Source of the DNA: Acidobacteriota bacterium
GTDB lineage: Bacteria; Acidobacteriota; Terriglobia; Bryobacterales; Bryobacteraceae
DNA: 64,000 nt
Reading direction: 5' to 3'
Assembly: GCA_026393985.1 (NCBI GenBank)
Contig: JAPKZB010000046.1
Span: forward strand, 1 to 64,000
Of this stretch, positions 5,530 through 26,261 are shown piece by piece. The notes beneath the pieces were generated by a model that saw only the letters and a list, made by a program, of their open reading frames with translations, searched no databases and was not told the DNA's origin. The translations under genes were made by a program, and so were the position numbers. Within the stretch, counting starts at the first letter, position 1. Every line of letters begins with the position of its first letter.

Positions 5530-5581
5530 CTGAAGTGTGACCGGCAAGTTTCTAGACCGCCGGCTAACTCGGAGCACATAA

Positions 5582-6238: not shown

Positions 6239-6268
6239 GAGTCGGAAACAGAAACCCGTGAGGTAACC

Positions 6269-6307
6269 AGAGGGGAGTTCTCGCAAGAGATTCCCCTCTT
6301 CCTTTTT
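6269..6307 (+). terminator. Rho-independent terminator after the first PEP-CTERM gene
   Basis: AGAGGGGA at 6269-6276 pairs with TCCCCTCT at 6292-6299 and is followed by a T-rich run (TTCCTTTTT). Confidence 0.75.
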
Positions 6308-6908
6308 GCCAAGCACAGGCTCTATGCCTTGTACAGGGCTTTGTCTCAGGCCCAGGGCGAATCGATCCCGCCCGGCCCGCCTTCTCCCCTGCCCCGGCCT
6401 CAAGAACCCGGTCGCTGCATTATCAATGCCACCGGGCGGCAGCGACCATCGATAGGCCCATCAAGCATGCTGGCATCCCCCAGCTCCGCTCCCGTCCCTG
6501 CGCCCAGAGCACAGGCACGGGTAAGAGGATGGAGTTAGCCCCACTCCACCCCGGCCAGTTGTTCTCCCTTCGCGACCCCGTAATCACACAGAAAACAGTA
6601 GCCTGCTCTTGGGGATTCGGTCGCGATCCGGTCAAATACCCCAGTCCAGCCGTACGGTAATCTACCGATGCACCCCTGGAAAAGGTCTGTGGTGGAAAAA
6701 TTGTCGGGATACAGAAAAATTTTTTTTCAAGAACCGTACTGGTTCCTTACTCCCATTCCAGTTATCCTCAGCCTACCCCTCTCGTGCTGCGCCTCTAACC
6801 GAGACCGTTAGAAACAAAGGAAAACAGAGTACTGGCCCTTAGTACGTTGGCCGCTGAGCCGCCAATCCAGTCAGCCGAGCGCGACGATTTCCCAGTACAT
6901 CAGTCCAA
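6308..6908. other. Gene-free stretch between PEP-CTERM genes
   Basis: No convincing gene was found. Short open frames on both strands lack ribosome-binding sites and family resemblance. An A5T8 tract lies near 6714-6728, and base composition turns more AT-rich toward the promoter of the next gene. Confidence 0.5.
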
Positions 6909-6937
6909 TTGAGCGATTTCACTTGGTTCTCTACACT
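6909..6937 (+). promoter_or_regulatory. Putative promoter of the second PEP-CTERM gene
   Basis: TTGAGC at 6909-6914 and TACACT at 6932-6937 have a 17-base spacer. The -35 hexamer is identical to that of the gene at 5582, and the leader again ends in CTAACTCGGAG (6972-6982), 7 bases before ATG. Confidence 0.45.
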
Positions 6938-6989
6938 TCAAATTGTCGCCGGAACATTCGCAGCCTGGCGACTAACTCGGAGAAATTAA

Positions 6990-7712
6990 ATGAAAAACAA
7001 CACGCTTCTTTCCGTCCTCTTCGGAGCGGTCTCGCTCTCGGCCACGCTCTCTGCCGGGACGATCTCATTAGGTCAGTGCGCCGGCCCCTCGCCGTGCGTT
7101 GCGACGCTCGATAACTGGGCCAGCATCTCTAACTTGGGTACCTTCGTGGACGGCATTACTCACAGCGTCACCGGCCTGAACGCCGAAAACCAAGTGCTGT
7201 ACACCGGAACCCTGCGGTCCGCGGTTTATCGCAACAGCTTGAATAATCAACTGGACTTCTACTACCAGTTCGTCAACAACGCGTCGTCCGTCGACTCGAT
7301 CTCACGAATCACGATGACCAACTTCGGTACTTTCACCACCAACGTGGGTTTCACCTCGCAGGACATCGACGGAACCACCGGTGGTGGCACCCCGGTCAAA
7401 ACGAACTTCGTTCAAGATGCGACTTTGATGCAGGCGCCTTCGCTCGCTAACCGCCCGAGCCAAGGCACCCTTGGCTTCAACTTCGGCGACGGAGTGATTA
7501 CGGCCGACATGATCAATCCCGGCGAGACATCGCGCATTCTGGTCATCCGGACTAACGCCACCAACTACAACAACGGCTCGACGAGCACCATCAACGGAGC
7601 AATTGCGACCTACCAGACGTTTGCCCCCACGGCGATTCCCGAACCGGGTACCTACGCTCTCATGGGCGCTGGTCTGATCGCGCTTGGCCTCGTGCGCCGC
7701 AAACAGCAGTAA
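6990..7712 (+). CDS. PEP-CTERM sorted exported protein (240-residue paralogue A)
   Basis: This is an exported protein with a signal peptide (MKNNTLLSVLFGAVSLSATLSA) and the sorting tail IPEPGTYALMGAGLIALG plus basic RRKQQ. The mature part begins with a segment containing two cysteines (GQCAGPSPCVA), probably a disulfide, then LGTFVDGITHSVTG, and carries YYQFVNN and QDIDGTTGGG. It is a close paralogue of the 240-residue protein at 9917. A strong hairpin terminator follows. A structural role at the cell surface or in the matrix is likely by family, but nothing enzymatic is visible. Confidence 0.93.
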   Translation: MKNNTLLSVLFGAVSLSATLSAGTISLGQCAGPSPCVATLDNWASISNLGTFVDGITHSVTGLNAENQVLYTGTLRSAVYRNSLNNQLDFYYQFVNNASSVDSISRITMTNFGTFTTNVGFTSQDIDGTTGGGTPVKTNFVQDATLMQAPSLANRPSQGTLGFNFGDGVITADMINPGETSRILVIRTNATNYNNGSTSTINGAIATYQTFAPTAIPEPGTYALMGAGLIALGLVRRKQQ

Positions 7713-7745
7713 CGCTTCGAAGCGGCCGCCGCTCACCCTCCCCTT

Positions 7746-7800
7746 GCCGACCGCCCGGCGGGACGTTTGCAGAAACGTCCCGCCGGGCGGTCGGCTTTTT
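7746..7800 (+). terminator. Strong rho-independent terminator, perfect 23-bp stem
   Basis: The left arm 7746-7768 pairs perfectly with 7773-7795 around a four-base loop (GCAG) and is followed by TTTTT. The core CCCGGCGGGACGT recurs in the terminator of the paralogous gene ending at 10639. Confidence 0.9.
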
Positions 7801-8124
7801 GGCGACGCTACACTTCTTTTCGAAAGCACTTGGTCGCAACCGTCTCGGCGCATCTCCTAACCCGCCACGGACGCTCGCCCCCATTAGCGCAAAAATAGCC
7901 GCGCCAAGCCTCCTGCGACGACCTTGCCCCTCTCGTGGCAGTTCCACTCCCCCGCGGACGCGCAGATATTGGGCTAAAACGGTGCGAGGCCTTGCCGGTG
8001 TTGCCGAGGCGCTGCCAGCCAAAGAGTCACCCATTTGGTGAAGTCGGAGCAAGGGCCAACCAGCGCGAACAGCGCGGAGCGGGCTCGCGGGGAACGGCCG
8101 CGGGAGCCCAATACAATCGGTGCC
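7801..8124. other. Gene-free stretch before the transposase remnant
   Basis: No gene, RNA or clear repeat was recognised. The open frames that cross it are short and have no family resemblance. Confidence 0.4.
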
Positions 8125-9167
8125 TCGGCAAAGTATAGTTTCACAGCCAGGAATCTAACGGCCTACGGAGGACTGCTGCCGGTGGCGGCGATGCTCGAGA
8201 AGTTGGAGTTCCGCGAACTCGTTGGCGAGTCCGTCACTCTGGAGTCGCAGCGGATGCCAAGGGCCATAAAGTCCAGCGAGTTTCTTCTCGGCATGAATTT
8301 GAGCGTGGAACGGCAGTTGGCGCGGCTGAACGCCCGCCTGCGGGAACGGGTCTGGCCCGCCGCCAATGTACGGCTGAAAGAGGTAACGCTCGACACCGAC
8401 ACGACAGTACACAAGCTGTCGGAAGACCAGCTGGGCGGCCGGGTGAGCTATAACCGCAAGAACAGAGGCAGCCCCAGTTGGCAGCCGATTTAACTATTAT
8501 CGCCGAGACGCGGGCCTGTACTGGTGGGAGGCGGTGAAAGCCTACGCGGACTGGCAGCCTTCGCCCGAGACGGACGCGGATTTTGATTGCCAGTTCAGCT
8601 ATCGGCCGGAGGATTGGGATCGGGAATACCGGTTCGTGAGCCTGCGCTATGCTGAGCCGGAGCCAGACGCGGACAATCCGGATCAGATTGGACTACTCGA
8701 TGACTTGGCTTGCTGCTACCGCGTGTTTGTGACCAGTATGAGCACCAGGAAATGGAGTCCGGCCGAGGTGGTAGCGTTTTATAACAAGCGCGCGGCGGTC
8801 GAGAATCCGATCAAAGAGACCAACAACGACATTGGATTGACGGCGCATCCATCCGGGCATTGGGCGACGAACGCGAATCACTGTCAGCTCAGCATGATGG
8901 CCTACAACTTGAACTGCTGCTGGAGTTGTTCGAGCGCGAGGAGTCTGTGACGGTGCCACAACTGCGGCACCGGACCATGGCCACGACGCGTTTGCGGTTG
9001 CTGTATCTGGCCGCCAGGATCACGCGCCATGGCGGGCAGACGAAATTCATTTCGGCGCGCCGTACCAGGAAAAGGCCCACCTCGACCGGTTGATGGCCCG
9101 TCTGCGGTTAATTAAAAGGAACCTCGATGGTTTCGTGCCCATGGTCAACCCGCCGCTGCGTGCATAG
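8125..9167 (+). pseudogene. IS1380-type transposase, decayed
   Basis: Pieces of one transposase lie in three reading frames. The N-terminal piece (to 8493) has LTAYGGLLPVAAMLEKLEF and then LDTDTTVHKL (first catalytic Asp region) and GGRVSYNRKNRG. It breaks off at QPI-stop. A second frame resumes at about 8495 with RRDAGLYWWEAVKAY and continues to FYNKRAAVENPIKETNNDIG, the C-terminal catalytic Glu region. The frame then changes twice more, ending with LDRLMARLRLIKRNLDGF and a stop at 9165-9167. Compared with a normal product of about 450 residues, a block inside the N-terminal piece and the segment before GLYWWEAV are missing. It cannot encode an active enzyme. Terminal inverted repeats were not identified. 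Confidence 0.85.
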
Positions 9168-10679: not shown

Positions 10680-10727
10680 GCCCGGCGGGACGTTTACCAG
10701 GACGTCCCGCCGGGCATCCGTCTTTTT
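10680..10727 (+). terminator. Rho-independent terminator after PEP-CTERM paralogue B
   Basis: A 14-bp stem (10680-10693 with 10702-10715; core CCCGGCGGGACGT) is followed by a CTTTTT tract at 10722-10727. Its core is shared with the terminator at 7746. Confidence 0.8.
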
Positions 10728-10755
10728 GGGCGGAACCGGACTCGATTGCTATACT
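10726..10755 (+). promoter_or_regulatory. Putative argS promoter
   Basis: TTGGGC at 10726-10731 and TATACT at 10750-10755 have an 18-base spacer. Transcription would start near 10762, almost at the GTG start at 10764, so the mRNA may be nearly leaderless. This fits the lack of a Shine-Dalgarno sequence there. Confidence 0.35.
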
Positions 10756-10763
10756 TACAAATA

Positions 10764-12680
10764 GTGCTTCTTCACCTGGAAAGCCGCATTGTCGCGGCCG
10801 TCTCGCAGCATGTTCTGATCCGCTACGGGTTGTCGATCCCGATTACGGTAGAACAGCCCCGCCAAGCCTCGTTTGGCGAGTTTGCTCTCCCCACGGCCTT
10901 CCAACTGGCCCGCGACCTCAAAAAGGCCCCGCGAGCCATTGCGCAGGAACTGGTTGCCGAACTTCCTGAAATCCCCGGCATCCAGTCGCTCGAGGTCGCC
11001 GGCAACGGCTACATCAATCTGCGGCTCGACCGCGAAGCCTTTGCCGCCGCCATCGCGCTCCCCCCGCCGCCCCCCCCGCCGGCGGGCCGCGTCCTCATTG
11101 AACACACGAGCATCAATCCGAACAAAGCAGCGCACATCGGCCACCTTCGGAATGCCATCCTTGGCGATACCTTCGTGCGGATGCTCCGCGCCGGCGGACG
11201 GCAGGTCAACGTCCAGAACTACATCGACAACACCGGCGTCCAGGTGGCCGACGTTGTGGTCGGCTTCCACTTCCTCGAAGGCCGGTCGCTCGCTGACCTG
11301 CGTACCCTGGTCGAAACGCCGCGCTTCGACTACCTCTGCTGGGACCTCTACGCCAAAGTCTCGCAAACCTATGCAACCGACGAGGCGCTCAAGGCCCGGC
11401 GCGCGGAAACCCTCCACGCCATCGAGGCCGGCCACGGCGAACTCGCCGAAATGGGCGCCCTGGTCGCGGACAAAATCGTCGGCTACCACCTCGACACCAT
11501 GCTGCGGCTTGGCATCGTCTACGACGCCCTGCCCCGCGAATCCGAGATCCTCCACCTCCACTTCTGGGCCGCCGCCTTCGAACTGCTCAAGGAACGCAAG
11601 GCCATCTACCTCGAATCCGAAGGCAAAAACCGCGGCTGTTGGGTTATGCCCGGGTCGGCCTTCTCCGAACATCGCGAAGACGAGGATTCCAAGGTCATCG
11701 TCCGCTCAAACGGCATCGTCACCTACGTTGGCAAGGACATCGCCTACCAGATGTGGAAGTTCGGACTCCTGGGCCGCGACTTTTACTACCGCCACCTCAG
11801 AACCTACCCGGACGGCCACCCGCTCTACGTCACGGCCTCGACGCCCGAAGGCGCCACCCCCGGCATCTCCTTCTCCGGCAACGAACGTGTTTATAACGTC
11901 ATCGACTCCCGCCAAAGCTACCTCCAGGACGTCGTCCAAGCCGGCCTCCGCGCCCTCGGCCACCCCCAGGAAGCGGCCAACTCCATCCACTTCTCTTACG
12001 AGATGGTCGCCCTCACGCCCCGCACCTGCGGCGAACTCGGCATCGAACTCACCGACGAAGACCGCGCCCGGCCCTACGTCGAAGTCTCCGGACGCAAAGG
12101 CCTCGGCGTCAAGGCCGACGACCTGATCGACAAACTGATCGCCGCCGCCCAGCGCGAAGTCGACTCCCGCAACGAACACGAACCGGCCGAAGTCCGCCGC
12201 CAGGTCGCCGAGACCATTGCCATAGGCGCCCTGCGTTACTTCATGTTGAAGTTCACCCGGCCCACCGTCATCGCCTTCGACTTCCAGGAGGCCCTCAGCT
12301 TTACCGGCGAAACGGGTCCCTACATTCAATACGCCGCGGTCCGCGCCGGCAAGATTCTGGCAAAGGCCGACTCCACTCCGGCTCTCCCCGCCGATCTTGG
12401 CCCGGTTCTCGCCGACGAAGAGCTATGGCAGTCGCTACTGGCCGCCTTCCGGACCGACTCGGCGCTGGCCATGGCCATCCAGGCCGACGAACCGGCCCAC
12501 ATGGCCCGCTACGCCTTCCAACTCGCCCAGGCCTTCAGCAACTTCTACCAGAAGTTCCCGGTTCTCACCGAAACCAACCCCACCAAGCGGGATTTCCTGC
12601 TCTGGCTCACCGCCGCCTACCGCGCCGAACTGGTCCGGACCCTCAACCTGCTCGGCATCGCCGTGCCCGTATTCATGTAA
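10764..12680 (+). CDS. argS: Arginine--tRNA ligase
   Basis: This cytoplasmic class I aminoacyl-tRNA synthetase charges tRNA-Arg. The signature region is [17 protein letters not shown] (HIGH motif). The KMSKS-equivalent region is [15 protein letters not shown], as in many bacterial ArgS. The N-terminal Add-1 domain ([20 protein letters not shown]) and the C-terminal DALR anticodon-binding domain ([22 protein letters not shown]) are both present. The frame is open upstream into the preceding PEP-CTERM gene; I chose the GTG at 10764 ([15 protein letters not shown]) because homology begins here, giving 638 residues. It is followed after 25 bases by acnA on the same strand. Confidence 0.94.
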
Positions 12681-15357: not shown

Positions 15358-15978
15358 TTACTTCTTCACGCTGATCTCTTTAAAGTACACCGTATCCCGG
15401 GTGCCGTGATTTTGGATGCCAATGTATCCTTTCCGCGCCCGGGGTCCCCGCACCGGTTCAAACCACATCTTCCGCTCCGGTACCGTCTGATCCCCCCGGA
15501 ACTCGTTCACCAGCTTCCCGTTCAGCTTCACCCGCGTCACGTCCCCCTTCAGTTCCACCTCCATCGTGTTCCACTCGCCCACCGGCTTCATGTTCCGCGC
15601 CGTCACCTTGCTCAAAGAGTAGAGCGCCCCCGTGCAGTGCCAGTCGTCGCCGGTAGCGTCAATCTGCACCTCGTAGCCGTTGTGCACCCCGTACCAGGCG
15701 TCCCGCGGCTTCTCCGGCATGCGGATGTAGAGCCCGGAGTTGGCGCCCTTCTCGGTTGGAGTCTTGAACACCACGCGCACCGTGGCATTCTCAAACGCCT
15801 CGTTCTCGAAGTAGAGCAGGCCCATGCCGCCGGTCGTTTTCAACATCCCCTCTTCGATGACGAACTTGCCCCAGCCCACTTGCTTCCAGCCCGTCAGGTC
15901 CTTGCCGTTCCACAGCTTCTGCCAGCCGGCCGCCGGCAGCATCGCCGCGGCCCATACAAACACGAGTAAGGTTCTCAC
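15358..15978 (-). CDS. Secreted DUF1080 (3-keto-disaccharide hydrolase-like) protein
   Basis: The 206-residue product has a signal peptide (MRTLLVFVWAAAMLPAAG) followed by one concanavalin-like DUF1080 domain: WQKLWNGKDLTGWKQ, ANSGLYIRMP, and GYIGIQNHGTRDTVYFKEI at the C-terminus. Members of this family occur beside sugar catabolism genes in Planctomycetes, Bacteroidetes and Acidobacteria, and some hydrolyse 3-keto-glycosides. It is the last gene of the minus-strand run, 9 bases after the APC permease, and converges on acnA with 24 bases between. Confidence 0.9.
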   Translation of the reverse strand: MRTLLVFVWAAAMLPAAGWQKLWNGKDLTGWKQVGWGKFVIEEGMLKTTGGMGLLYFENEAFENATVRVVFKTPTEKGANSGLYIRMPEKPRDAWYGVHNGYEVQIDATGDDWHCTGALYSLSKVTARNMKPVGEWNTMEVELKGDVTRVKLNGKLVNEFRGDQTVPERKMWFEPVRGPRARKGYIGIQNHGTRDTVYFKEISVKK

Positions 15979-15987
15979 GAACCTATG

Positions 15988-17244
15988 TTACCCTCTCCGC
16001 CGCCAGGCTACCAACGCCCCAACCGCCGCCCACGCCGTCCCCATCACAAGCGCCGTCCAGCCCAGATTGGCCCACATGAAGAAACAGATGGCCAGGCCGG
16101 CCGCCGGCGGCGCCATCCCCCGCAGCGTCCGCTCGCTCCGCCGCAGACACGCCAGGTTCACCCCCATGAAGCCAATAAACGCCCCGTAGTTCAGCAGCAG
16201 CGCTCCGGTCTCGTAGGAGATGCTTAACGCGCCCAGCAGCGTCAGCGCGCCAATCAACAGGACATTCTTCACCGGCACGCCGGTGGAGTCCTGAATGCTC
16301 GCAAAGAACCCGCGCGGCAGCGCCCCATCGCGCCCCATGCCAAACAATAGCCGCGCCCCGGCCATCTGCCCGCCCGCGCCGCTGCCGATGCTGGCCACCA
16401 GCAGCGTCAGATTGATCGTCTGAAACAGCCACTCGCCCCCGGCGCGGCCCGCGGCATAGACATAGGCCGTATCGACGTCGGGAAACGCCTGCCCGTGCGG
16501 CCATACCAACTGCGCGGCATAGATTTCGATCGCGCTCAGCGCCCCGATCAGCAGGCAGACCAGCACCGTCGCTCGGGGCACGTTGCGTTCGGCGTCCACC
16601 GTCTCCTCCGATAGCGTCGAAATAGCGTCAAAGCCGATGTAAGTCAGCACCGCGAGCGACGTCCCCGCCGATAACTTCCCCCAACTGAAGGTTACCGGAT
16701 CATAGAACGGCTTCAGTAAGTCGACGCCCGGGTTGCCCACCGCAAACCGCACCGTGGCCGCCACCATCCAGGCCACCACCCCGAGCATCACGATGGCGAG
16801 CCACTTGTTCGTATTCGCCGTCGCCGCCACGGCGCGCAGATTCAGCCCCGTAAACAGCAGCGCAAACAGCACCACCGCCGCCGGATACGGCAGCCCCGGA
16901 AAGATGTTCAGCAGCGCCTTGCTGCACCAGATGGTGCAGATCATCGGGTTGATGACGTAGTCGAGCAGCATGCCCCAACCGGTCAGAAATCCGGCGGTGG
17001 GGTGCACCTCCCGGCCCACGTAGGTATAGGCGGACCCGGCGCTCGGATAGAGCCGCGCCATCCGCCCATAGGAGATGGCCGTAAAGAGCATCCCCACCAG
17101 AGCAAGCAGGATGGCCGAAACCACATGGCCACCCGCCAGGTTGCTGACCACGCCAAACAGAGGCATCGGCGCGGTGGGCTGAATCAGGATCAGCCCCATG
17201 AAGACCAGATCACTCAGGCGCAGGGTCTTTTTCAGTCCACTCAT
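15988..17244 (-). CDS. APC-superfamily amino acid permease
   Basis: This is a polytopic inner-membrane transporter of 418 residues with about 12 hydrophobic segments. The N-terminal SDLVFMGLILIQPTAPMPLFGVV and the YPSAGSAYTYVGREVHPTAGFLTGW block are typical of the APC family, as is LTYIGFDAISTLSEETVDAERNVPRA. It probably imports an amino acid or related compound by cation symport; substrate specificity cannot be read from sequence. It follows the TonB receptor after 49 bases and precedes DUF1080 by 9 bases, so it is probably co-expressed with both. Confidence 0.93.
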   Translation of the reverse strand: MSGLKKTLRLSDLVFMGLILIQPTAPMPLFGVVSNLAGGHVVSAILLALVGMLFTAISYGRMARLYPSAGSAYTYVGREVHPTAGFLTGWGMLLDYVINPMICTIWCSKALLNIFPGLPYPAAVVLFALLFTGLNLRAVAATANTNKWLAIVMLGVVAWMVAATVRFAVGNPGVDLLKPFYDPVTFSWGKLSAGTSLAVLTYIGFDAISTLSEETVDAERNVPRATVLVCLLIGALSAIEIYAAQLVWPHGQAFPDVDTAYVYAAGRAGGEWLFQTINLTLLVASIGSGAGGQMAGARLLFGMGRDGALPRGFFASIQDSTGVPVKNVLLIGALTLLGALSISYETGALLLNYGAFIGFMGVNLACLRRSERTLRGMAPPAAGLAICFFMWANLGWTALVMGTAWAAVGALVAWRRRG

Positions 17245-17293
17245 GAATTCCTCAATTGTGGCACTGCCGGACCCGCCCCGTCAGGCGAACCGG

Positions 17294-20200
17294 CTAGAAA
17301 AACAGCTTCAGCGCGAGACGGAACTGCCGCTCGGTAGCCTGGGCGCTGGTGATCTCCGTCCAACCGTTCAAAGCCGTAATCTGCCCCGCCGCGTTCCGGG
17401 TGGCGCCGGAGACGGTAGCCCCCGGAGTGTTGAAGGCCGGCGTGTTCGACAGGTTAAACACCTCGGCGCGGAACTGCATCCGCAGCCGTTCGGTGACGTT
17501 GAAATTACGGAACAGACTGCCGTCGAGGTTGATCACCCCCGGCCCGCGCAGAATGTTACGGCCCGAGTTACCGAACCGGACGTCGATGACCGGCATGAAG
17601 GCCATCGGATCAAAGTAGCTGGCGCCGCGGCCGATGCCGCCGAGGATGCGGACCTTATCCACCACCTGATCCGCCGTCTGGCTGTTGCCGGGCGAGTTCA
17701 CCGACGTCCCCGCCGACGAGACCGTAAACGGCGAACCGCTGAAGGCGCTGAAGATGCCGTTCAACTGCCAACCGCCGAGCACGGCGCCGGCCAAGCCGCT
17801 GGTGGCGTACTTCTGCCCCTTGCCGAAGGGCAGTTCGTAGACGCCGAAGATCTGCAGGTTCTGCGGCCGGTCGAAGCTGGCCACGGCGCGGTTCCGGCGC
17901 CACAGCGCGGGGGCTTGCCAGGTCAGGCCGCTGTCGTTGTTATCGGCCCAGCTGATCGCCTTCGACCAGGTGTAGGACAAACCCAGCTGCGAGGACTGGC
18001 TCATCCGCTTGGTGAGCTGCATCTGCAGGGCGTTGTAGTTGGAGGTATTGAACGGGGTCAGCTGGTTGATGTTGCCGATCAGGCCAAACTGGGCAAACAG
18101 GGCGCGGTTATTGTTGCCGCCGCCGGCGCCGGTGTTGGTGTTGATGTTCAGCACCGCCGTCTGGCGAATGGCCCGCGTCCCGACGTAGGAGAGCTGCAGC
18201 GTAGTGTCCTTCATCAGCTCCCGCTGAATGGTCGCGTTGAAGCTCTGGATGTAGCCGCGGTTAAAGCGCTGCGGGAAGGTGACGGTACCGACGGCGGCCG
18301 GCAGTGGAATCGAGCCGGAGCTGACATCGGGCGGGACGACAGCCGGAATGCCGGTGCGCAGCGTACCGGCGGCAATGAAGCTGGTGGCGCCGGAGAACTG
18401 CGTCGAGATGGTGGCCGGGTAGGCGTCGCGCATGCTCCGGAAGGAGTTCGGGTCGATGCTGATGCCGTAGCCGAGGCGCAGCACCGTCTTTTCGGTGGCG
18501 CGGTAGGCGATGCCGAGACGCGGGGCGATCTGCCCCCAACCGACGTCGACACCGGTATCGCGGGGCGTGCTGCCCAAACCGCCGATCAGAACGCGGTTCA
18601 GCGTGGCGTCGTAGCGCTCGCCGCCTCGGTGGTCGCGCGTGGCAAACGGATAGTATTCGTAGCGCATACCGTAGTTCAGGGTCAGCTTCCGGTTGACCTG
18701 CCACTGGTCGCGCGCGTAGAAGCCGTAGGAGGGCATGCGCACCGCCGCGGGGTTGATGTTCTGCACGTCCTTGCCCATGCCCTGGGCCTGGCCAAGCAGG
18801 AAGTCGGCAAACCCGTTGTACTGGTTCGGGGCCGCGCCGCCGTTGAGCGCCGTCAGACCGCCGGTGAAATTGAAGCCGCCACGGGGCCCGAAGGCGGCCT
18901 GGGGCTGGAAGTGGTTGATGGTGTAGTAGGCGTACTCGGCGCCAAAGCGGAGCGAGTGGGAGCCCTTGAACCAACCGACGTTGCCGACCGCGACGTACTG
19001 GTTATCGCGGAACAGGAAGGGATTGGAGACGTTCGGGTTTCCGAGGGCGGAAAAGCCGCTGATGTTGAAGCGCGGATAGCCGCCCTGCAGCCGGTCTCCG
19101 CCGTTGGTGCCGGGAATCTTCAGATCTTCGAGGCCATAGTTGCGGCCGATGTCGACGTTCTCGGCGCTCAGGCGGAGCCGGGTAAAGCCCACGTTGGCGT
19201 CGATGAGGACCCGCGGGGAGACGGTATAGGTGCCACCGATGGCGGCGCTCTGGATCAGGCCGGGCGCGCGGCCGGGCTGCCCGCCGTTCAAGGCGTCGCC
19301 GCCTGCCGCGCCGAGCGACGGCGGATCAAAAATCAGGCTGGGCGAGAAGCTGTAGCGGCCAAAGACAGAGGACTTTTCCGTCGGGTTGTAGTTCACCTTG
19401 AAGTCGGCGTTATCGCGATTGAACTCATAAGTTCCGCTGGCGAAGTGATTGTTCTGAATCTGGTTGGAACCAGCCGGCAGGCCAACGTAGTTGGGGGCGA
19501 TCAGCAGGCCGAGCATGGTGGCGGCGGCGGGGTCGATGCGGCTGGCCGGGATGCGCAGTCCAGGGAACAGAAGCCGGCCGGTCCCGCTGGCGGCGCCGGT
19601 GGCGGGGTCGAAGATGTTGGTCCCAAAGTCGCTGAAGTCGCCGCCGCGGAGCGGAGCGTTGGGCAGAGTGCGGAAGGCCGAAGCGTTCTGGCGGCGGACG
19701 GTGCGTTCCCAATCGGCGAAGAAGAAGAGCTTGTTCTTTTTGATCGGGCCGCCGAAGGTGCCGCCAAACTGATTCAGGATGTTCTTCGGCAGGTTGCCAC
19801 CGTAGTAGAAGAAGTTGCGGGCGCGCATGGCGCTGTTGGTGTGGAACTCGTGGGCCGAGCCGTGGAACTCATTGGTCCCGCTCTTGATGGTGACGTTCAT
19901 CGCCGCGCCGCCCGCCATGCCCTGCTCCGCGTCAAAGCTGTTGGAGACGACGTTGACGGTTTCAATGGCATCCTGGGGCGGCACGTACGCCACGATGTGG
20001 GGCAGCCAGGGGTAGCTCACGGTGGCGCCGTCTATGCGCGTGTTGTTGTTCGAGTAACTGGCGCCGTTGACGTTGGTGCCCATGGCCCGCTGCGGATTGC
20101 CCGCGTCGGAGTGCAGTTCGGTGGGGGGCGAGAAGCCCGGGATGATCTTATACAACGATTGGAAATTCCGTCCCGCGCCAATTGGCAGGTTGGTGATCTG

Positions 20201-20614
20201 GCTCTTGGAGATCTGCGTGTTGAGGTCGGCGCGGTCGGTCTGCAGCGTGGCGGCCGAACCTTCGACGACGATGCTCTCGGTCACGCTGGCCACCTGCAGA
20301 CGCGCGTCGATACGGCGCACCGTGTTGGCGTCAATCGATACGCCGTTCTGCACCACGGCGCGGAAGGAGGGCGACGAGATGGAAACCTTATAAGTCCCGG
20401 GCTGCAGGTCGTTGAACAGAAACGTGCCGCGCTCGTCGGTGGTTCCCTGCCGGGTGACCCCGGTGGCGGTATTGGCCGCTTCGACCTTGGCCCCGGCCAC
20501 GGCCGCATCGGCCGCATCGGTCACGTTACCCGTTAACGACCCGTATAAGACCTGCGCCGGTGCGGACACCGCACTCAGCCAAACTCCCAGCAACAAGGCT
20601 CCCAATTTCTGCAT
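17294..20614 (-). CDS. Oar-like TonB-dependent receptor in a sigma-factor operon
   Basis: The 1,106-residue outer-membrane receptor starts MQKLGALLLGVWLSAVSAPAQ (signal peptide), then a carboxypeptidase-regulatory domain (GSLTGNVTDAADAAVAGAKVEA), a plug (NGASYSNNNTRIDGATVSYPW, MNVTIKSGTNEFHGSAHEF) and a barrel ending in RQFRLALKLFF. The frame is open far upstream, but that part overlaps the membrane-protein gene at 20632. The ATG at 20614 lies 17 bases after that gene's stop. It follows a sigma factor, a small unknown protein and a membrane protein, suggesting dedicated transcriptional control of this receptor. Confidence 0.93.
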   Translation of the reverse strand: MQKLGALLLGVWLSAVSAPAQVLYGSLTGNVTDAADAAVAGAKVEAANTATGVTRQGTTDERGTFLFNDLQPGTYKVSISSPSFRAVVQNGVSIDANTVRRIDARLQVASVTESIVVEGSAATLQTDRADLNTQISKSQITNLPIGAGRNFQSLYKIIPGFSPPTELHSDAGNPQRAMGTNVNGASYSNNNTRIDGATVSYPWLPHIVAYVPPQDAIETVNVVSNSFDAEQGMAGGAAMNVTIKSGTNEFHGSAHEFHTNSAMRARNFFYYGGNLPKNILNQFGGTFGGPIKKNKLFFFADWERTVRRQNASAFRTLPNAPLRGGDFSDFGTNIFDPATGAASGTGRLLFPGLRIPASRIDPAAATMLGLLIAPNYVGLPAGSNQIQNNHFASGTYEFNRDNADFKVNYNPTEKSSVFGRYSFSPSLIFDPPSLGAAGGDALNGGQPGRAPGLIQSAAIGGTYTVSPRVLIDANVGFTRLRLSAENVDIGRNYGLEDLKIPGTNGGDRLQGGYPRFNISGFSALGNPNVSNPFLFRDNQYVAVGNVGWFKGSHSLRFGAEYAYYTINHFQPQAAFGPRGGFNFTGGLTALNGGAAPNQYNGFADFLLGQAQGMGKDVQNINPAAVRMPSYGFYARDQWQVNRKLTLNYGMRYEYYPFATRDHRGGERYDATLNRVLIGGLGSTPRDTGVDVGWGQIAPRLGIAYRATEKTVLRLGYGISIDPNSFRSMRDAYPATISTQFSGATSFIAAGTLRTGIPAVVPPDVSSGSIPLPAAVGTVTFPQRFNRGYIQSFNATIQRELMKDTTLQLSYVGTRAIRQTAVLNINTNTGAGGGNNNRALFAQFGLIGNINQLTPFNTSNYNALQMQLTKRMSQSSQLGLSYTWSKAISWADNNDSGLTWQAPALWRRNRAVASFDRPQNLQIFGVYELPFGKGQKYATSGLAGAVLGGWQLNGIFSAFSGSPFTVSSAGTSVNSPGNSQTADQVVDKVRILGGIGRGASYFDPMAFMPVIDVRFGNSGRNILRGPGVINLDGSLFRNFNVTERLRMQFRAEVFNLSNTPAFNTPGATVSGATRNAAGQITALNGWTEITSAQATERQFRLALKLFF

Positions 20615-20631
20615 GCATAAGGGATGCGATT

Positions 20632-21354
20632 TTATGCCGGTTTGTTGGCGCCCAAAAAAATTTGCTGCCGCATGCGGACAGCGGCCCGCGTCACGCTCCA
20701 GCGCTCCATCGCCGCCATCGTAAACAGCCAGGGCGCCGCAACATTGGACCACTGCATCCAATCGCCCGTTATCGCTAGTGCGGTGCCTAAATACAAGTTC
20801 CCAAGACGCACCAGCAGAAACGCCACCATCCAGCGTAGCGCCACCGCCCAGCGCCCTCCGGCCATCGACCGGCTGATGCGATGTAACCCGAGCGCGACAA
20901 TAACCGGCACGGCGAGAAGCACGGAGCTCAAGGACTGCAGATAGCGCATCGCCGCAATACCGCTCGCCGAATCGCCCATCCGCTCGCGGTGAATCACCAC
21001 CGGGACCGCCAGGCAGGCAATCAACAGAAGCCAAACCCAGTCCACCCGCCGCCAGCGCGGGGCCATGCCCGCGTCGCGAAAAGCCCGCCCCAACTCCAGC
21101 AAGCCACCCGTGAGTGCCAGCAGCGAGGCGACAATCACCACCTGCCGCCAGCTGCGAGTGGTCAACTCCCAATTGCCCAATTCCGCTACGGCCTCGTAGC
21201 TGTGCCGCACCATGGACAACAGAGCGCTGAGTCCCATCAGCGTCCAGGCCCGCCACATCGGGGAGTGGGGCGCGGAGTCACCCCGTATGCGCCAGCAGTA
21301 AGGCAGGGCTACCGCATAGGCGGCAACTTTCAGGATCTCCTGCCAGAGATACAT
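20632..21354 (-). CDS. Polytopic membrane protein of unknown function in the sigma/TonB operon
   Basis: I do not recognise the family. The 240-residue protein has about six to seven hydrophobic segments: near residues 38-55, 75-92, 104-122, 135-160, 168-192 and 202-215. Charged loops lie between them, and no enzymatic or transporter signature is visible. Its ATG directly abuts the stop of the 115-residue gene (TAG then ATG), which indicates translational coupling, and the TonB receptor starts 17 bases after its stop. By position it could be a membrane sensor or anti-sigma-like regulator controlling the upstream sigma factor, but this is inference. Confidence 0.8.
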   Translation of the reverse strand: MYLWQEILKVAAYAVALPYCWRIRGDSAPHSPMWRAWTLMGLSALLSMVRHSYEAVAELGNWELTTRSWRQVVIVASLLALTGGLLELGRAFRDAGMAPRWRRVDWVWLLLIACLAVPVVIHRERMGDSASGIAAMRYLQSLSSVLLAVPVIVALGLHRISRSMAGGRWAVALRWMVAFLLVRLGNLYLGTALAITGDWMQWSNVAAPWLFTMAAMERWSVTRAAVRMRQQIFLGANKPA

Positions 21355-21702
21355 CTAGGCGACCTCGAGCGAATGGCCGGCCTGCCCGACCAACTGTCCG
21401 GCGGCCAGGCCGCAAAACGAACCGATCAGTTCACTTAAGGAAGTTACAAACCGCGGCCAGGTCCGGCGCGAGACCCCGCCGCACTGCCGCGCGGCCGTCG
21501 CCATCGCCGACGCGGCTCCGCTGCTTCCGCACAGCGGCTCCAGCAGATGCCCTAGCAGCGCCAAGGCCTCTTCGGCCCGCAGACCGCTGCCGCCGAGCCG
21601 CGCCATGGTGCCGCGCAACAGACGCTCCACGTCCTGGGCGCCGGCCGACGAAGCCGCTCGCCACCGCGCGCCCTCCTGCTGCAATGCCATCTCCCAGTTC
21701 AT
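21355..21702 (-). CDS. Small soluble protein of unknown function, coupled to ECF sigma factor
   Basis: The 115-residue product starts at MNWEMALQQEGARW; its ATG overlaps the sigma-factor stop as ATGA (21699-21702), so translation is coupled. A longer open frame upstream lies inside the sigma gene and is not used. The protein looks mostly alpha-helical, with no transmembrane helix, no zinc-finger anti-sigma motif (HxxxCxxC) and two cysteines in separate helices. By position it is the candidate partner of the sigma factor, possibly an unrecognised anti-sigma factor, but no family was identified. Confidence 0.75.
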   Translation of the reverse strand: MNWEMALQQEGARWRAASSAGAQDVERLLRGTMARLGGSGLRAEEALALLGHLLEPLCGSSGAASAMATAARQCGGVSRRTWPRFVTSLSELIGSFCGLAAGQLVGQAGHSLEVA

Positions 21703-22226
21703 CGAAAATGTTCCGCCAACTTCTTTTTTAACTGAAAAACGCGCCACTGTACCGTGCCCATCGGCATCTCCAGCAGCTCGGCGATCTCATGATGCGTGAA
21801 TCCGTCCACATAACGCAGCAGGAGCAACTCCCGGTCCGCTTCCGGCAGACACGCGAGCCACTCGCCCAACGCCAGGCCGGCGAACGGATTCCAGGCCGCG
21901 CCCTCCAGCCGATCGGCCAGGGCCACCGTCTCCACTCGCTGTCCCTGTTTGCGCAGGTGCTGCAGCAGAGCGTTCTTGGCAATGCGGAACAGCCACGGCC
22001 GGAACAGGTCGCGGTCCCGCAGCCCGTCCACCTTCCGGAACAGGGTCAGCATCACCTCCTGCGTCAGGTCCTCCGCCACCCCGGTCTCGCAACCACGGGC
22101 CCGAAAATAGACCAGCAGTTGCGGAGCCAGCAGCCGGAACAGGACCGCAAACCGCTCCTCATCCGGGCAGGCGACGAATGACTCCAAAGCCGCTTCGAGT
22201 TGCTCGGCGGTAAAAGTAACCGACAT
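21699..22226 (-). CDS. ECF-type RNA polymerase sigma factor
   Basis: This is an extracytoplasmic-function sigma factor of about 175 residues. Region 2 is ETGVAEDLTQEVMLTLFRKV followed by RPWLFRIAKNALLQHLRK. Region 4 is LPEADRELLLLRYVDGFTHHEIAELLEMPMGTVQWRVFQLKKKL, a helix-turn-helix that reads the -35 element. The ATG at 22226 is 13 bases past the DUF1501 stop; a GTG two codons upstream is an alternative. It sits between a PSCyt1/DUF1501 pair and a TonB receptor, so it may control its own operon. Confidence 0.92.
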   Translation of the reverse strand: MSVTFTAEQLEAALESFVACPDEERFAVLFRLLAPQLLVYFRARGCETGVAEDLTQEVMLTLFRKVDGLRDRDLFRPWLFRIAKNALLQHLRKQGQRVETVALADRLEGAAWNPFAGLALGEWLACLPEADRELLLLRYVDGFTHHEIAELLEMPMGTVQWRVFQLKKKLAEHFR

Positions 22227-22239
22227 CGGCACGGCGAGC

Positions 22240-23634
22240 CTAGGCCAAAACGTCGTTCATCACCTGACCGGCCACATCGGTCAAGCGAAAGAACCGGCCG
22301 CTGTAGGGATAGGTGAGGCGCGTATGATCGATTCCCATCAGATGCAGAATCGTCGCGTGTAGGTCGTGCACGTGCGCCCGCTTCTCCACCGCCCGGCCGC
22401 CAAACTCATCCGTCGCGCCGTAAACGGTACCGCCCTTCACCCCCGCCCCGGCCAGCAGATAGGTGAACCCTTCGTTGTTATGATCCCGCCCGTTCTGCAC
22501 GTTGATCCGCCCGTTGGTCTCAATCCATGGACGCCGTCCGAACTCGCCGCCAATCACCACCAGCGTCTCTTTCAGCAGCCCCGACGCCTTCAGATCTTTG
22601 AGCAGCGCCGCAATCGGCTGGTCGGCCTGCTGGGCCAGCTTCCGGTGCACCAGAATGTTGTGGTGACTGTCCCACGGCTTATCGTTGCCGAAGTAGACCT
22701 GCACGGCGCGGACGCCGCGCTCCACCAGACGGCGAGCCACCAGGCACCCCCGCGCAAAGTCGCCGTCCCGCGTCGCCGACTTGATCTTCATCTCGGCTTC
22801 GTCCGGATTGCGCGTCACCCCGTAGGCCGCGTGCACCTTCGCCGGCTCCTTCGAGATGTCAAAGGCATCCATCGCCTCGGCCTGCATCCGGTAGGCCACC
22901 TCCATCGATTGGATGCGGCCCTCAAGCAGCGGGTCCGCCCCGCGCTTGGCCAGTTCGAGACCATTCAGCTTGTTCAGAAAATCGAGCGTCTTGCGCTGTT
23001 CAGCCAGCGAGGTGGTCGCGTTGCGCAGATGCTGAATCATCTTCTCCGGGTCCGCCTCGTCGTTGGGCACGTAGGTCCCCTGGTAAACCGACGGCAGAAA
23101 TGCATTCCCCCAAAGGTTCGCGCCCACGTCCGGCACCCCGGCGCACAGCGCCACAAAGCCCGGCAGATTCTTGTTCTCGCTGCCCAGGCCGTACGTCAGC
23201 CACGAACCCCAGGAAGGAAAGCCCGGAATGATCCGGCCAATGTTCATCTGCAGCATCGCCTGCGGATGCGCCGGCAGGTCGCAGTACATCGACCGGACAA
23301 CGCAAATGTCGTCAATGCACTCGCCCACCTGCCGGAAAATCTCGGAGACCTCAATCCCCGATTGCCCGTACTTCTGGAACGAAAACGGCGAACGCATCAG
23401 CGTTCCCTGCCCCATCTTCGTCTGCCCCGGCGGCAGCGTGCCGTGGAACTTGTCGAGCGCCGGCTTCGGGTCAAACGTATCGACCTGCGACGGCCCTCCG
23501 TTGAAAAACAGGAAGATGACCGATTTGGCTTTCGGCGTAAAGTGCGGGCCGGTGGCAGCGGCAATGTTATTTGCCAGGCCGATCATGCCGAAGCCGGTTC
23601 CGAGGGTCTTGAGTGCGTCGCGGCGGTTCATCAT
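22240..23634 (-). CDS. Tat-exported DUF1501 (sulfatase-like fold) protein, copy 1
   Basis: The 464-residue protein carries a twin-arginine leader (MMNRRDALKTLGTGFGMIG) and the DUF1501 pattern: FLFFNGGPSQVDTFDPKP, RSMYCDLPAHPQ, LVARRLVERGVRAVQVYFG, VIGGEFGRRPWIE and GRDHNNEGFTYLLAGAGVKGG. The family belongs to the alkaline-phosphatase superfamily but has no established substrate. It is almost always paired with a PSCyt1/DUF1549/DUF1553 gene, as here with 8 bases between. An AAGGA ribosome-binding site precedes the ATG. Confidence 0.93.
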   Translation of the reverse strand: MMNRRDALKTLGTGFGMIGLANNIAAATGPHFTPKAKSVIFLFFNGGPSQVDTFDPKPALDKFHGTLPPGQTKMGQGTLMRSPFSFQKYGQSGIEVSEIFRQVGECIDDICVVRSMYCDLPAHPQAMLQMNIGRIIPGFPSWGSWLTYGLGSENKNLPGFVALCAGVPDVGANLWGNAFLPSVYQGTYVPNDEADPEKMIQHLRNATTSLAEQRKTLDFLNKLNGLELAKRGADPLLEGRIQSMEVAYRMQAEAMDAFDISKEPAKVHAAYGVTRNPDEAEMKIKSATRDGDFARGCLVARRLVERGVRAVQVYFGNDKPWDSHHNILVHRKLAQQADQPIAALLKDLKASGLLKETLVVIGGEFGRRPWIETNGRINVQNGRDHNNEGFTYLLAGAGVKGGTVYGATDEFGGRAVEKRAHVHDLHATILHLMGIDHTRLTYPYSGRFFRLTDVAGQVMNDVLA

Positions 23635-23642
23635 GGGTGTCC

Positions 23643-26261
23643 TTAATTAACAAACAGGAATTCGTTCGAGCTGAGCAGCGCCTTGGCCAGTTGCGTCCAC
23701 GGGTCCTTGGCCGCCTGCGTGAATTCCATACTCAGCTTACGCTCCTCCGGCTCGGGGTTGCGGGAGAAGACGGCGCGGTAGAGGAAGCCCACCCGGTCGG
23801 TGGCCTTCGCCGCATCCGCCGCCAGCTTCCGCGCCCGGGCGTCTACAAAGTCGCTGTTCAGGAAGAACAGCTGCTGCAGGGCCGTGGCCGTCACGTTGCG
23901 CTGCTCGCCCGTCGCGTTCGGGTTCGGGAAGTCGAACAGGGCCAGCGTACCGTCCAGCTTCCGGCGCGATACGAGCCCGTAAATGGTCCGCTTCCGCGTC
24001 TCGTTGGCCGCCAGGTCGGCCGGCTCGGCGCCCGGCGTCACGTCGAGCTCCGCCGAAGCCTCGAGCAGCGCGTCGCGCAGACTCTCGGCGTCCAGGCGCT
24101 GCCGGTTGGCCCGCCACAACAGCCGGTTCGCCGGGTCCTTCTCCACACCGGCCGGCGTGTTCGCCGCCGAAAGCTGATAGGTGGCCGAAAGCAGGATCTC
24201 GCGGTGCAGCTTCTTGAGCGACCAACCGTTGTTGACAAAACTCGCCGCCAGATAGTCCAGTAACTCCTGATTGCTCGGTTTCCCGCCCATGCGACCGAAG
24301 TTACTCACCGTCGGCACAATTCCCTCGCCAAAGTGATGCGCCCATACCCGGTTCACCATCACCCGCGGCGTCAGCGCATTCTCGGGCGCCACCATGGCGT
24401 TGGCCAGTTCCAGACGTCCGCTGCCCGTCGTAAACGGCTTCTCGTTGAGAACCGATAAAAAGCCCCGCGGAACCTCCGGCCCCAAATTGTCCGGCTGCCC
24501 GTTGATGTGAATCCGTTGGTTCTTCGGGTTGGGCAGATCCTCAATCACGTGGGCATAGGCATACTGCGCCGGCAGCGCCGCCTTCCGCTCCTTCAGTTCG
24601 GCCCGCAGCGCCTTCAGGTGCTCCGCCCAGGGACCGGTCAGAAACCGCTCAATCGTCCCGTCCGAGGTCAGATACCCGCGGTTCGGGCCAAAATACAGAA
24701 TCCCGTCCTCCTCCTGCTTGAACTCCTTGCCGTAGAAGTCCGAGAAGTAAAGGTCGCGCCACAGGAAGAAATCCTCCGTCTTCAGCGACACCGTCACATA
24801 ACCATCCACGTTCTTGGCGCCCTTGGCGTTCGCTTTGCGGACCAGGTTCTCTTCGTCCACGCGGTCCCGCTCGGCCAACACCCGGAAACACTGGTCGCGG
24901 AAGGCATTGGCGTCGAACGACTCGCTCTGCCAACCCTTCAGATACTGGTTATCCTCGGGCCCGGTCTTCAGATACCGCACCCAGTTCTTGAGCACCCCCA
25001 GGTCCAGATGGTCCGCCGCGGCCGCCGCCTCCACCGTCACCGGATTCGGACCCACCAGCACCCGCCGCGCCGCCGCCAGATACTGCGGCGACTGCATCGT
25101 CAGAATCTTCGCCATGCTCGTCGCCTGCTCGTGCAGAAACGTCTGAATCCGGGCTTCAAGCTCCTTCACCTTCGCTTCCTTGCGCTTGTACTCGGCCACC
25201 TCCGCGGTCGGCGCCAGCGGCAACTCGCTCCGCTTGGTCGAGGAGAACACGCCCTGCAGCGCGTAAAAGTCGCGCGTCGGAATCGGGTCGAACTTATGGT
25301 CGTGACACTGTGCGCACGCCGCCGTCATCGCGAGAAAGCCGCGCGTGGTGGCGTCCACCCGGTCGTCTACCAGTTCGGGACTCAGCCCGTAGAAACCCAA
25401 CCCTACCGCCAGGTCCGGGTGCTGCTCGTGTTTCGGCAGCAAATCACCGGCAATCTGCGCCTTCACAAACAGGTCATAGGGCATGTCCCGGTTCATCGCC
25501 GCAATCACCCAATTCCGGTAGCGGAACGAGTTCGGATACGGATCAAACACGTCGTTCGACAGCTTATCGTCGGCGTACCGGGCAATATCCAGCCAGTAAC
25601 GGCCCCACCGCTCACCGTAGCGCGGCGAAGCCAGTAGCTGATCCACCACCTTCGCAAACGCCTCCGGCGACCGGTCGGCCAGAAACGCATCAACCGCCGC
25701 CGCCGAAGGCGGCAGCCCCGTCAGATCAAAATAAGCCCGGCGAATCAAATCCCGCTTTGCCGCCGGCGGGTTCTGCGCGAGCCCCTTGGCCGTAAGGCGC
25801 GCCCGCACCAGACTATCAATCGACGCACCCGCGGCCGGCTTCGCCAGCGGGGCAAACGCCCAGTAACTCCGCTGCTCGGCCGTAATCACCATCGGCGCAT
25901 TCGACTTCTGCGAAACCGCCGCCTCCGGCCACGGCGCACCCGCGCTGATCCAACTCGCCAGATCCGCAATCTCCGCCGCCGATAGCTTCGGTTGATTGAA
26001 CGGCATCTGCAGCTTCGGGTCGCCATGGCGCACCGCCGTCAATAACAGGCTCTCGTCCGGCTTACCCGGCACCACCGCCGGACCACGCTGCCCACCCTTT
26101 AAAAGCGCGGCGCGGGAATTCACCGCCAGCCCGGACTGCGGCGTCAACGCATGGCAGGAGTAACAACGATTCGCCAAAACCGGACGGACCTTGGACTCAA
26201 AAAACTCCGCCGGATCAGCGGCGAATAACGGCAGAGCGAAAGCAGCGAGCAACAAGCGCAT
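23643..26261 (-). CDS. Secreted PSCyt1/DUF1549/DUF1553 protein, copy 1
   Basis: The 872-residue exported protein starts with a signal peptide (MRLLLAAFALPLFAADPAEFF). It has a cytochrome-c-like PSCyt1 domain with haem motif CYSCH near residue 33 and a distal Met candidate (QMPFNQPKL). DUF1549 follows (LIRRAYFDLTGLPPS, SPRYGERWGRYWLDIARYADD), with a second CxxCH in CAQCHDHKFDPIP. DUF1553 at the C-terminus contains NALTPRVMVNRVWAHHFGEGIV and LHREILLSATYQLS. Such proteins are abundant in Planctomycetes and Acidobacteria and are thought to act in polysaccharide degradation, but the reaction is unproven. It is the first gene of the minus-strand run; a TATATT -10-like box lies at about 26301-26306. 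Confidence 0.93.
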   Translation of the reverse strand: MRLLLAAFALPLFAADPAEFFESKVRPVLANRCYSCHALTPQSGLAVNSRAALLKGGQRGPAVVPGKPDESLLLTAVRHGDPKLQMPFNQPKLSAAEIADLASWISAGAPWPEAAVSQKSNAPMVITAEQRSYWAFAPLAKPAAGASIDSLVRARLTAKGLAQNPPAAKRDLIRRAYFDLTGLPPSAAAVDAFLADRSPEAFAKVVDQLLASPRYGERWGRYWLDIARYADDKLSNDVFDPYPNSFRYRNWVIAAMNRDMPYDLFVKAQIAGDLLPKHEQHPDLAVGLGFYGLSPELVDDRVDATTRGFLAMTAACAQCHDHKFDPIPTRDFYALQGVFSSTKRSELPLAPTAEVAEYKRKEAKVKELEARIQTFLHEQATSMAKILTMQSPQYLAAARRVLVGPNPVTVEAAAAADHLDLGVLKNWVRYLKTGPEDNQYLKGWQSESFDANAFRDQCFRVLAERDRVDEENLVRKANAKGAKNVDGYVTVSLKTEDFFLWRDLYFSDFYGKEFKQEEDGILYFGPNRGYLTSDGTIERFLTGPWAEHLKALRAELKERKAALPAQYAYAHVIEDLPNPKNQRIHINGQPDNLGPEVPRGFLSVLNEKPFTTGSGRLELANAMVAPENALTPRVMVNRVWAHHFGEGIVPTVSNFGRMGGKPSNQELLDYLAASFVNNGWSLKKLHREILLSATYQLSAANTPAGVEKDPANRLLWRANRQRLDAESLRDALLEASAELDVTPGAEPADLAANETRKRTIYGLVSRRKLDGTLALFDFPNPNATGEQRNVTATALQQLFFLNSDFVDARARKLAADAAKATDRVGFLYRAVFSRNPEPEERKLSMEFTQAAKDPWTQLAKALLSSNEFLFVN

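What the first reader, a model, noticed from the sequence alone, without database searches (positions are those of the whole stretch)
20614..22226. Sigma factor, unknown small protein and unknown membrane protein translationally coupled ahead of a TonB receptor
The ECF sigma stop overlaps the next start (ATGA), that gene's stop abuts the next ATG, and the TonB receptor follows 17 bases later. The 115-residue protein has no anti-sigma zinc motif and the 240-residue membrane protein has no recognised family. Classical TonB signalling uses a single-span FecR-type anti-sigma factor and a receptor with an N-terminal signalling extension. Here the receptor instead has a carboxypeptidase-regulatory domain, and a polytopic protein replaces FecR. 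This may be a distinct receptor-control module.
Basis: partly seen in the sequence, partly recalled or inferred. Interest (0 to 1): 0.75.

Follow-up and report, generated by a model that had tools for sequence, protein, structure and literature searches.

The report
Sigma factor with seven-helix membrane partner
Next to a gene switch (a sigma factor), this bacterium carries a small helical protein and a seven-helix membrane protein that recur together with such switches in related bacteria and look like an undescribed way of passing a signal from the inner membrane to the switch.

Summary
The arrangement is real and exact (minus strand): sigma 21699-22226, X (115 aa) 21355-21702, TM (240 aa) 20632-21354, receptor 17294-20614. 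X and TM match no Pfam or NCBIfam family but have relatives. Profile searches found an ECF sigma gene with the same kind of polytopic protein at 21 loci in 18 acidobacterial genomes of two families; an X protein between them could be read at 19. In 11 of these 19, X carries a zinc anti-sigma motif (H-x3-C-x2-C) ahead of the X domain; the window's clade lacks it. TM is predicted as a seven-helix bundle. X-7TM pairs without sigma occur at 7 further loci.

Reading: X is a shortened anti-sigma/adaptor protein and the 7TM protein is the membrane sensor that holds it. The receptor is the next gene in only 4 of 13 lineages, and such receptors make up about 2% of this genome's genes, so it is more likely an output than a defining part. 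The mechanism is untested. New variant of a known kind.

The parts
21699..22226 (-). ECF sigma factor, 175 aa (P0003)
   Evidence: Sigma70_r2 E 1.1e-12, Sigma70_r4_2 E 1.1e-12; clusters with the other module sigma factors of its group, apart from 22 background sigma factors (no support values printed)
21355..21702 (-). X, 115 aa (P0001): predicted cytoplasmic helical anti-sigma/adaptor protein without the zinc part
   Evidence: Homologous to the part behind the zinc finger in L053/L054 (31 and 35% identity); found by an X-domain HMM built without its clade, zinc parts trimmed, E 7.8e-11; five-helix model, pLDDT 88.4
20632..21354 (-). TM, 240 aa (P0002): predicted seven-helix inner-membrane protein, putative sensor
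   Evidence: Model with seven long helices, pLDDT 82.7; found by a 7TM HMM built without its clade, E 2.1e-29
17294..20614 (-). Outer-membrane receptor, 1106 aa (P0004), OMP_b-brl_4 with CarboxypepD_reg; probable output, not a defining part
   Evidence: Pfam; next gene in 4 of 13 sigma-linked lineages

Best explanation
A three-gene ECF sigma signalling module: sigma factor, a cytoplasmic anti-sigma/adaptor protein (X, often with an N-terminal zinc anti-sigma domain) and a seven-helix inner-membrane sensor. Proposed working: the 7TM protein holds X at the membrane through its conserved cytoplasmic loops; X binds and silences sigma; a stimulus perceived by the 7TM protein (unknown) changes the 7TM-X contact and frees sigma, which transcribes its operon and the output gene, here the receptor. 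In the window's clade the zinc three-helix part is gone; what is left aligns just behind it, where helix 4, the sigma-2-binding element of class I anti-sigma domains, would lie, so silencing would rest on half of the usual double interface plus the 7TM partner. Shown here: gene order, homology, zinc motif in relatives, purifying selection, predicted folds. Inferred: binding, topology, direction of control, signal, and the helix-4 assignment.
For: 21 loci in 18 genomes join an ECF sigma gene to this 7TM family, with X readable between them at 19. H-x3-C-x2-C in 11 of those 19 X proteins; in 2567 ORFs of the fetched loci the motif occurs in 14, of which 12 are X proteins and the other 2 look like further zinc anti-sigma proteins. 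Leave-one-clade-out HMMs recover the 7TM protein in 17 of 17 clades (E 1.2e-17 or better) and X in 15 of 16 (E 3.6e-05 or better; G779 0.046); with the zinc part trimmed the X domain alone is recovered in 13 of 16 clades at E<=0.004, the window's at 7.8e-11. Module sigma factors form two groups apart from 22 background ones. W, D, R and G invariant in 16 aligned 7TM proteins lie by the model in or near loops after helices 1, 3 and 5. Positive charges per side in the own protein: 13 K+R on the loops after helices 1, 3, 5 and the C-terminus, 5 on the others.
Against: No interaction, expression or phenotype data. The window's X lacks the zinc helices, so it may not bind sigma at all. X-domain homology is not significant for G731 (0.16), G779 (2.5) and G637 (3.4) once the zinc part is trimmed, and the fused N-terminus of G011 is not recognised as X (0.32-0.98). 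X-7TM pairs stand without sigma at 7 loci, so the pair is not only a sigma regulator. The 7TM model rests on 10 sequences and one protein; Foldseek found nothing at E<=0.001.
Confidence: 0.6

Rival explanations
1. Receptor-driven cell-surface signalling: the outer-membrane receptor senses a substrate and signals through the 7TM protein to X and sigma, as FecA-FecR-FecI does.
For: Receptor directly downstream in the window's clade, L053/L054, G133 and G231; 4 of 13 lineages against 2% of genes, P 1e-4 at p=0.02 or 1.4e-3 at p=0.04, though some of these lineages are neighbours in the sigma tree and so not independent. In G011 the nearest relative of the receptor (68%) lies divergently beside sigma.
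Against: No STN domain; no receptor as next gene in 9 of 13 lineages; the receptors of the two modules in G010 are only 38% identical, while receptors elsewhere in the same genomes are 44-46% identical to P0004, so no receptor type tracks the module.
Confidence: 0.15
2. Relaxed or altered control in the window's clade: with the zinc helices gone, X no longer inhibits sigma and has another role (for example stabilising the 7TM protein); sigma is controlled by transcription alone or directly by the 7TM protein.
For: Zinc part missing in all 7 loci of the clade; sigma lies 13 nt behind DUF1501 and so may be transcribed with it; G006 has a disrupted sigma frame; polytopic anti-sigma proteins without a helper are known (NrsF, PMC3511200, passages).
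Against: X is kept under purifying selection with unchanged junctions; zinc-free class I anti-sigma domains are common (about 44%, PMC7406223, passages).
Confidence: 0.2
3. X-7TM is a transport or enzyme unit that happens to be co-transcribed with sigma factors as one of their targets.
For: No known domain in either; the pair also stands without a sigma gene beside unrelated genes.
Against: X is fused to a zinc anti-sigma motif in 11 of 19 readable sigma-linked loci; no transporter or enzyme match.
Confidence: 0.05

Closest known systems
sigma-M / YhdL / YhdK of Bacillus subtilis (PMC6827917, abstract and passages)
   Same: ECF sigma gene in an operon with two regulators that act together as anti-sigma complex; the second, a membrane protein, is needed for full inhibition.
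   Different: YhdL is itself a transmembrane protein; in the modules here the first regulator is predicted soluble, often with a zinc motif, and the second is a seven-helix protein. Sequences were not compared here.
SigX / CfrX / CmpX / OprF of Pseudomonas aeruginosa, ECF102 (PMC8999054, section 4 read)
   Same: Sigma factor, small soluble putative anti-sigma protein, inner-membrane protein (there an ion channel), outer-membrane protein.
   Different: No Pfam channel family hits TM; CfrX is not described there as zinc-bearing. Sequences were not compared here.
NrsF-type polytopic anti-sigma proteins, sigma-F of Caulobacter (PMC3511200, passages)
   Same: A polytopic membrane protein encoded after the ECF sigma gene; the authors themselves considered a third component that binds both.
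   Different: Six predicted segments against seven here; DUF1109 is not among the hits of TM at E<=1; here a separate soluble protein lies between.
Class I zinc anti-sigma factors (ZAS; ChrR, RshA, RsiW; PMC7406223 and PMC8999054, passages and section 4)
   Same: Most ZAS-X relatives of X have H-x3-C-x2-C and lie right after an ECF sigma gene.
   Different: The window's own X has no zinc motif; the X domain behind the motif matches no Pfam family.
FecI / FecR / FecA signalling (recalled)
   Same: Sigma gene, membrane regulator and outer-membrane receptor in one operon.
   Different: No FecR-type regulator, no STN domain on the receptor, a seven-helix protein instead.

Membership tests
Class I zinc anti-sigma factor (ZAS) | H-x3-C-x2-C zinc motif | tested here: not met
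   Absent in the window's X and its 6 close relatives; present in 11 of the other 12 readable sigma-linked X proteins, G231 being the exception
Class I zinc anti-sigma factor (ZAS) | Homology to ZAS-bearing proteins encoded after an ECF sigma gene | tested here: met
   31 and 35% identity to the part behind the zinc finger of L053/L054; HMM without its clade, zinc parts trimmed, E 7.8e-11
Class I zinc anti-sigma factor (ZAS) | Binds and inhibits the cognate sigma factor | not testable with these tools
   No co-folding or binding assay available
FecI-FecR-FecA system | FecR-type single-span anti-sigma factor | tested here: not met
   No FecR hit for X or TM in Pfam or NCBIfam at E<=1
FecI-FecR-FecA system | STN signalling domain on the receptor | tested here: not met
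   Not among the 11 Pfam hits of P0004 at E<=1
NrsF (DUF1109) | DUF1109 profile match | tested here: not met
   0 Pfam families for TM at E<=1; the family name is recalled and in PMC3511200
Microbial rhodopsin / GPCR-like 7TM | Seven-helix bundle | tested here: met
   Seven long helices in one model; best Foldseek hits rhodopsins and GPCRs, E 0.014, TM 0.49, none at E<=0.001
Microbial rhodopsin / GPCR-like 7TM | Retinal-binding lysine in the last helix (recalled feature) | tested here: not met
   No lysine in residues 198-236 of P0002
Microbial rhodopsin / GPCR-like 7TM | Sequence homology to solved members | tested here: not met
   PDB search with the 16-row 7TM profile: no rhodopsin or GPCR at E<=1
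Numbered ECF groups (Casas-Pastor 2021) | Match to a group model | not tested
   Group models not available; ECF270 is ZAS-controlled with an acidobacterial example

The most novel reading that the evidence does not exclude
X-7TM is a portable sensor cassette of Acidobacteriota: a seven-helix receptor with a dedicated cytoplasmic adaptor domain (X), in logic like a GPCR with its cytoplasmic partner. Fused to a zinc anti-sigma domain it drives ECF sigma factors with varied outputs (outer-membrane receptors, Tad-type genes, phosphatase or kinase circuits); alone it serves other outputs. In the window's clade the adaptor has replaced most of the anti-sigma domain.
Probability: 0.4. Interest if true: 0.82.

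Novelty: new variant of a known kind. Interest (0 to 1): 0.64.

Why it matters
ECF sigma factors are a main bacterial route from envelope to genes, and most described membrane regulators of them are anti-sigma proteins with one or a few spans (general knowledge). A recurrent seven-helix partner with its own adaptor domain would add a sensor class, would give a function to two protein families absent from Pfam and NCBIfam, and makes testable predictions for a phylum that is abundant in soil and hard to culture. The zinc-free variant would test how small an anti-sigma element can be.

Tried and rejected
Single-sequence searches made X and TM look confined to one genus (7 and 8 of 61 genomes); profiles were needed. 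The first phylum search with A2 gave one weak hit besides the own genome (G279, E 4.3e-4; 2 of 396 genomes); I kept it because an X-like gene overlaps its start, and that opened the rest. X against the sigma-less X proteins by hhalign was weak (E 0.0042, probability 8); leave-one-out HMMs replaced it. In one search ORFs labelled non-family ranked above held-out proteins (1-3 for 7TM, 0-3 for X); one search shows most to be relatives: second 7TM copies (L074, L075), a partial 7TM (L118), a nested start of the L117 X; for X, two zinc-motif proteins (L126, L053) score about 3e-4 with the full X model, so the zinc part alone can give that much, which is why I trimmed it. There 3 of 16 clades failed (G731, G779, G637). 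A Kyte-Doolittle helix count gave 5-13 helices for 7TM proteins and 0-2 for X proteins; it is too crude and is not used. The loose loop pattern R-x4-[MLI]-x2-G-x2-[ASGT] is in 28 of 30 7TM proteins, but for G231 and G027 the first match lies elsewhere, and no shuffled control was run. PDB sequence searches gave nothing. No promoter comparison was made beyond printing two intergenic stretches.

Of the 22 of 299 genomes, 17 have matches at E<=2e-16 and 5 are weak (G634, G774, G647, G718, G732). Contexts were fetched for 14 regions of 12 genomes, not for G774, G647 and G732; G718 (L127) showed no 7TM hit in the model search; G634 holds a decayed copy. G261, G267 were not looked at. The tools scored only 6-8 candidates per genome, so these tallies are lower bounds. 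The 22 background sigma factors were chosen by similarity to the window's sigma factor, so the apartness of the second group is less well tested. Tad genes are named by Pfam in L114 and L121 only, by eye in L119, L123, L124. Paper searches bearing on novelty: (open-access library only); none listed a paper describing a seven-helix partner of an ECF anti-sigma factor; I judged this from listings. Subscription papers and the ECF group tables were not seen.
Full report
OBSERVATION. The finding is exact. On the minus strand lie an ECF sigma factor (21699-22226), a 115-residue protein X whose ATG overlaps the sigma stop, a 240-residue membrane protein starting right after the X stop and, 17 nt on, a 1106-residue outer-membrane receptor. 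Pfam and NCBIfam name only the first and the last. X and TM show dN/dS of 0.11-0.24 and 0.06-0.12 against three relatives (dS is high, so these are rough).

CLOSE RELATIVES. The same order stands in six other genomes of the genus: G010, G016, G001, G017, G009, G006 (in G010 the contig ends within the receptor). G017's contig has the length and match position of a record titled Candidatus Sulfopaludibacter sp. SbA3, so the window's genome is placed in that record's genus. In G006 the sigma frame is disrupted in region 4. 11 of the 19 genomes of the genus searched have no X by E<=0.001 plus G011 none (7 of 19 positive).

THE KEY PARALOGUE. G010 and G016 carry a second module (L053, L054). There the middle protein is 175 aa: an N-terminal zf-HC2 zinc finger (E 3.9e-08 and 8.6e-09) and then a stretch homologous to X (31 and 35% identity). 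So X is a relative of zinc anti-sigma proteins that lacks the zinc part. In G011 sigma is followed directly by one 335-aa ORF that ends in the 7TM domain; its N-terminus looks X-like by eye, but the X models do not recognise it (E 0.98 and 0.32). The nearest relative of the window's receptor (68%) lies divergently beside it.

WIDER FAMILY. A phylum search with the 7TM profile gave one weak hit with an overlapping X-like gene upstream (G279). Following it found X-7TM pairs without sigma in G456 (two), G463, G460, G069 and G399: 7 such loci with G279, and no sigma-model hit in the 3.6-11 kb fetched around them. It also found complete four-gene modules in another family: G133 (sigma, zinc + X, 7TM, receptor) and G231 (sigma, zinc-free X, 7TM, receptor). 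A mixed profile then hit 22 of 299 genomes of the class at E<=0.01, adding sigma-linked loci in G723, G612 (two), G027, G685, G731, G637, G623 and G706. The last phylum search hit 9 of 396. In all 21 sigma-linked loci in 18 genomes; X readable at 19 (G011 has no separate X, G623's is masked by N); in G612b sigma is cut by the contig end; G612c and G779 are cut before sigma, G618 is partial. H-x3-C-x2-C is present in 11 of the 19 and absent in 8, the window's 7 and G231. Pfam zf-HC2 is over its cut-off in L053, L054, L083, L114, L120, below it in L116, L123, L125, and not reported in L115, L117, L119, L121, L122.

HOMOLOGY TEST. Leaving out one clade at a time and searching 2567 ORFs plus the held-out protein: 7TM found in 17 of 17 clades, E 1.2e-17 to 1.1e-65; X in 15 of 16 at E<=3.6e-05, G779 at 0.046. 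The window's clade: 2.1e-29 (7TM), 4.3e-11 (X). With zinc parts trimmed from all rows, X is found in 13 of 16 clades at E<=0.004 (window 7.8e-11; sigma-less groups 9.5e-11 and 2.3e-05) and not in G731, G779 and G637; best unrelated ORFs there are at 0.0047-0.4. Profile comparison of the two 7TM groups: probability 95.7, E 1e-08. A sigma tree puts the module sigma factors into two groups, each without any of 22 background sigma factors; no support values were printed.

STRUCTURE. TM: seven long helices, pLDDT 82.7 from 10 sequences. Foldseek's first hits are microbial rhodopsins and GPCRs, weakly (E 0.014, TM 0.49; none at E<=0.001). No lysine in residues 198-236, so hardly a retinal protein. 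K+R: 13 on the loops after helices 1, 3, 5 and the C-terminus, 5 on the other side, which favours a cytoplasmic C-terminus. Besides the start methionine, W, D, R and G are invariant in 16 aligned sequences. X: five helices, pLDDT 88.4, no fold match. Other members were not modelled.

MECHANISM. Published coevolution work gives class I anti-sigma domains two contacts: helix 1 with sigma 4, helix 4 with sigma 2 (PMC7406223, passages). In the alignments the window's X starts just behind the zinc helices and keeps the segment where helix 4 would lie. Hence the proposal: a reduced anti-sigma element plus an X domain held by the 7TM sensor. Signal, direction of control, topology and the helix-4 assignment are inferred.

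THE RECEPTOR. 150 of 159 matches were listed and merge into 117 loci, about 2% of genes if one gene per kb is assumed. Of 36 sigma region-4 hits over the cut-off in the own genome, only this one has this arrangement; three other neighbourhoods (C83, C59, C16) were read and hold no 7TM or X hit. The receptor follows the module in 4 of 13 lineages (window's clade, L053/L054, G133, G231), more than chance though these are not all independent; a receptor also lies upstream in G612a. Elsewhere the trio adjoins Tad-type genes (L114, L119, L121, L123, L124), a SpoIIE phosphatase gene (L115) or a PAS/histidine kinase gene (L120). It is best seen as an output.

KNOWN SYSTEMS. It works like sigma-M/YhdL/YhdK (PMC6827917, abstract and passages), SigX/CfrX/CmpX/OprF (PMC8999054, section 4) and NrsF (PMC3511200, passages); by the tests made it is a member of none of the families it was tested against, and sequences of the first two were not compared. 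ECF270 is listed as ZAS-controlled with an acidobacterial example; membership there was not tested.

VERDICT. Real, conserved, and not described in what the open-access searches listed. New variant of a known kind.

Noticed in passing
L061 (G006) 10688-11496: The sigma frame is disrupted in region 4 and runs on out of frame over the start of X; natural deletion or assembly error, not told apart.
   Followed up: partly
L074 3620-5915, L075 3485-5657: Two 7TM genes in tandem behind one X-like gene, without a sigma gene in the fetched DNA.
   Followed up: no
L115 (G612), minus strand: Trio followed by a SpoIIE-type phosphatase (Pfam) and, by eye, an RsbW-like kinase and a STAS protein; a receptor and a DUF1080-like gene lie upstream.
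   Followed up: partly
L082 (G081) 3149-4907: A truncated 7TM relative (E 1.6e-11) next to what looks by eye like a GAF/histidine kinase gene.
   Followed up: no
L126 (G634) 4875-8623: Sigma and a zinc-motif protein, then over 2 kb later a 7TM relative split over several frames: a decayed module.
   Followed up: partly
L114, L119, L121, L123, L124: Tad/TadE-G-like genes next to the trio in five loci of the second sigma group (Pfam in L114 and L121, by eye in the rest).
   Followed up: partly
window 15361-26261: The module is framed by DUF1549/DUF1553 and DUF1501 genes upstream and by an amino acid permease and a 3-keto-disaccharide hydrolase gene downstream; much of this frame is kept in close relatives.
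   Followed up: partly
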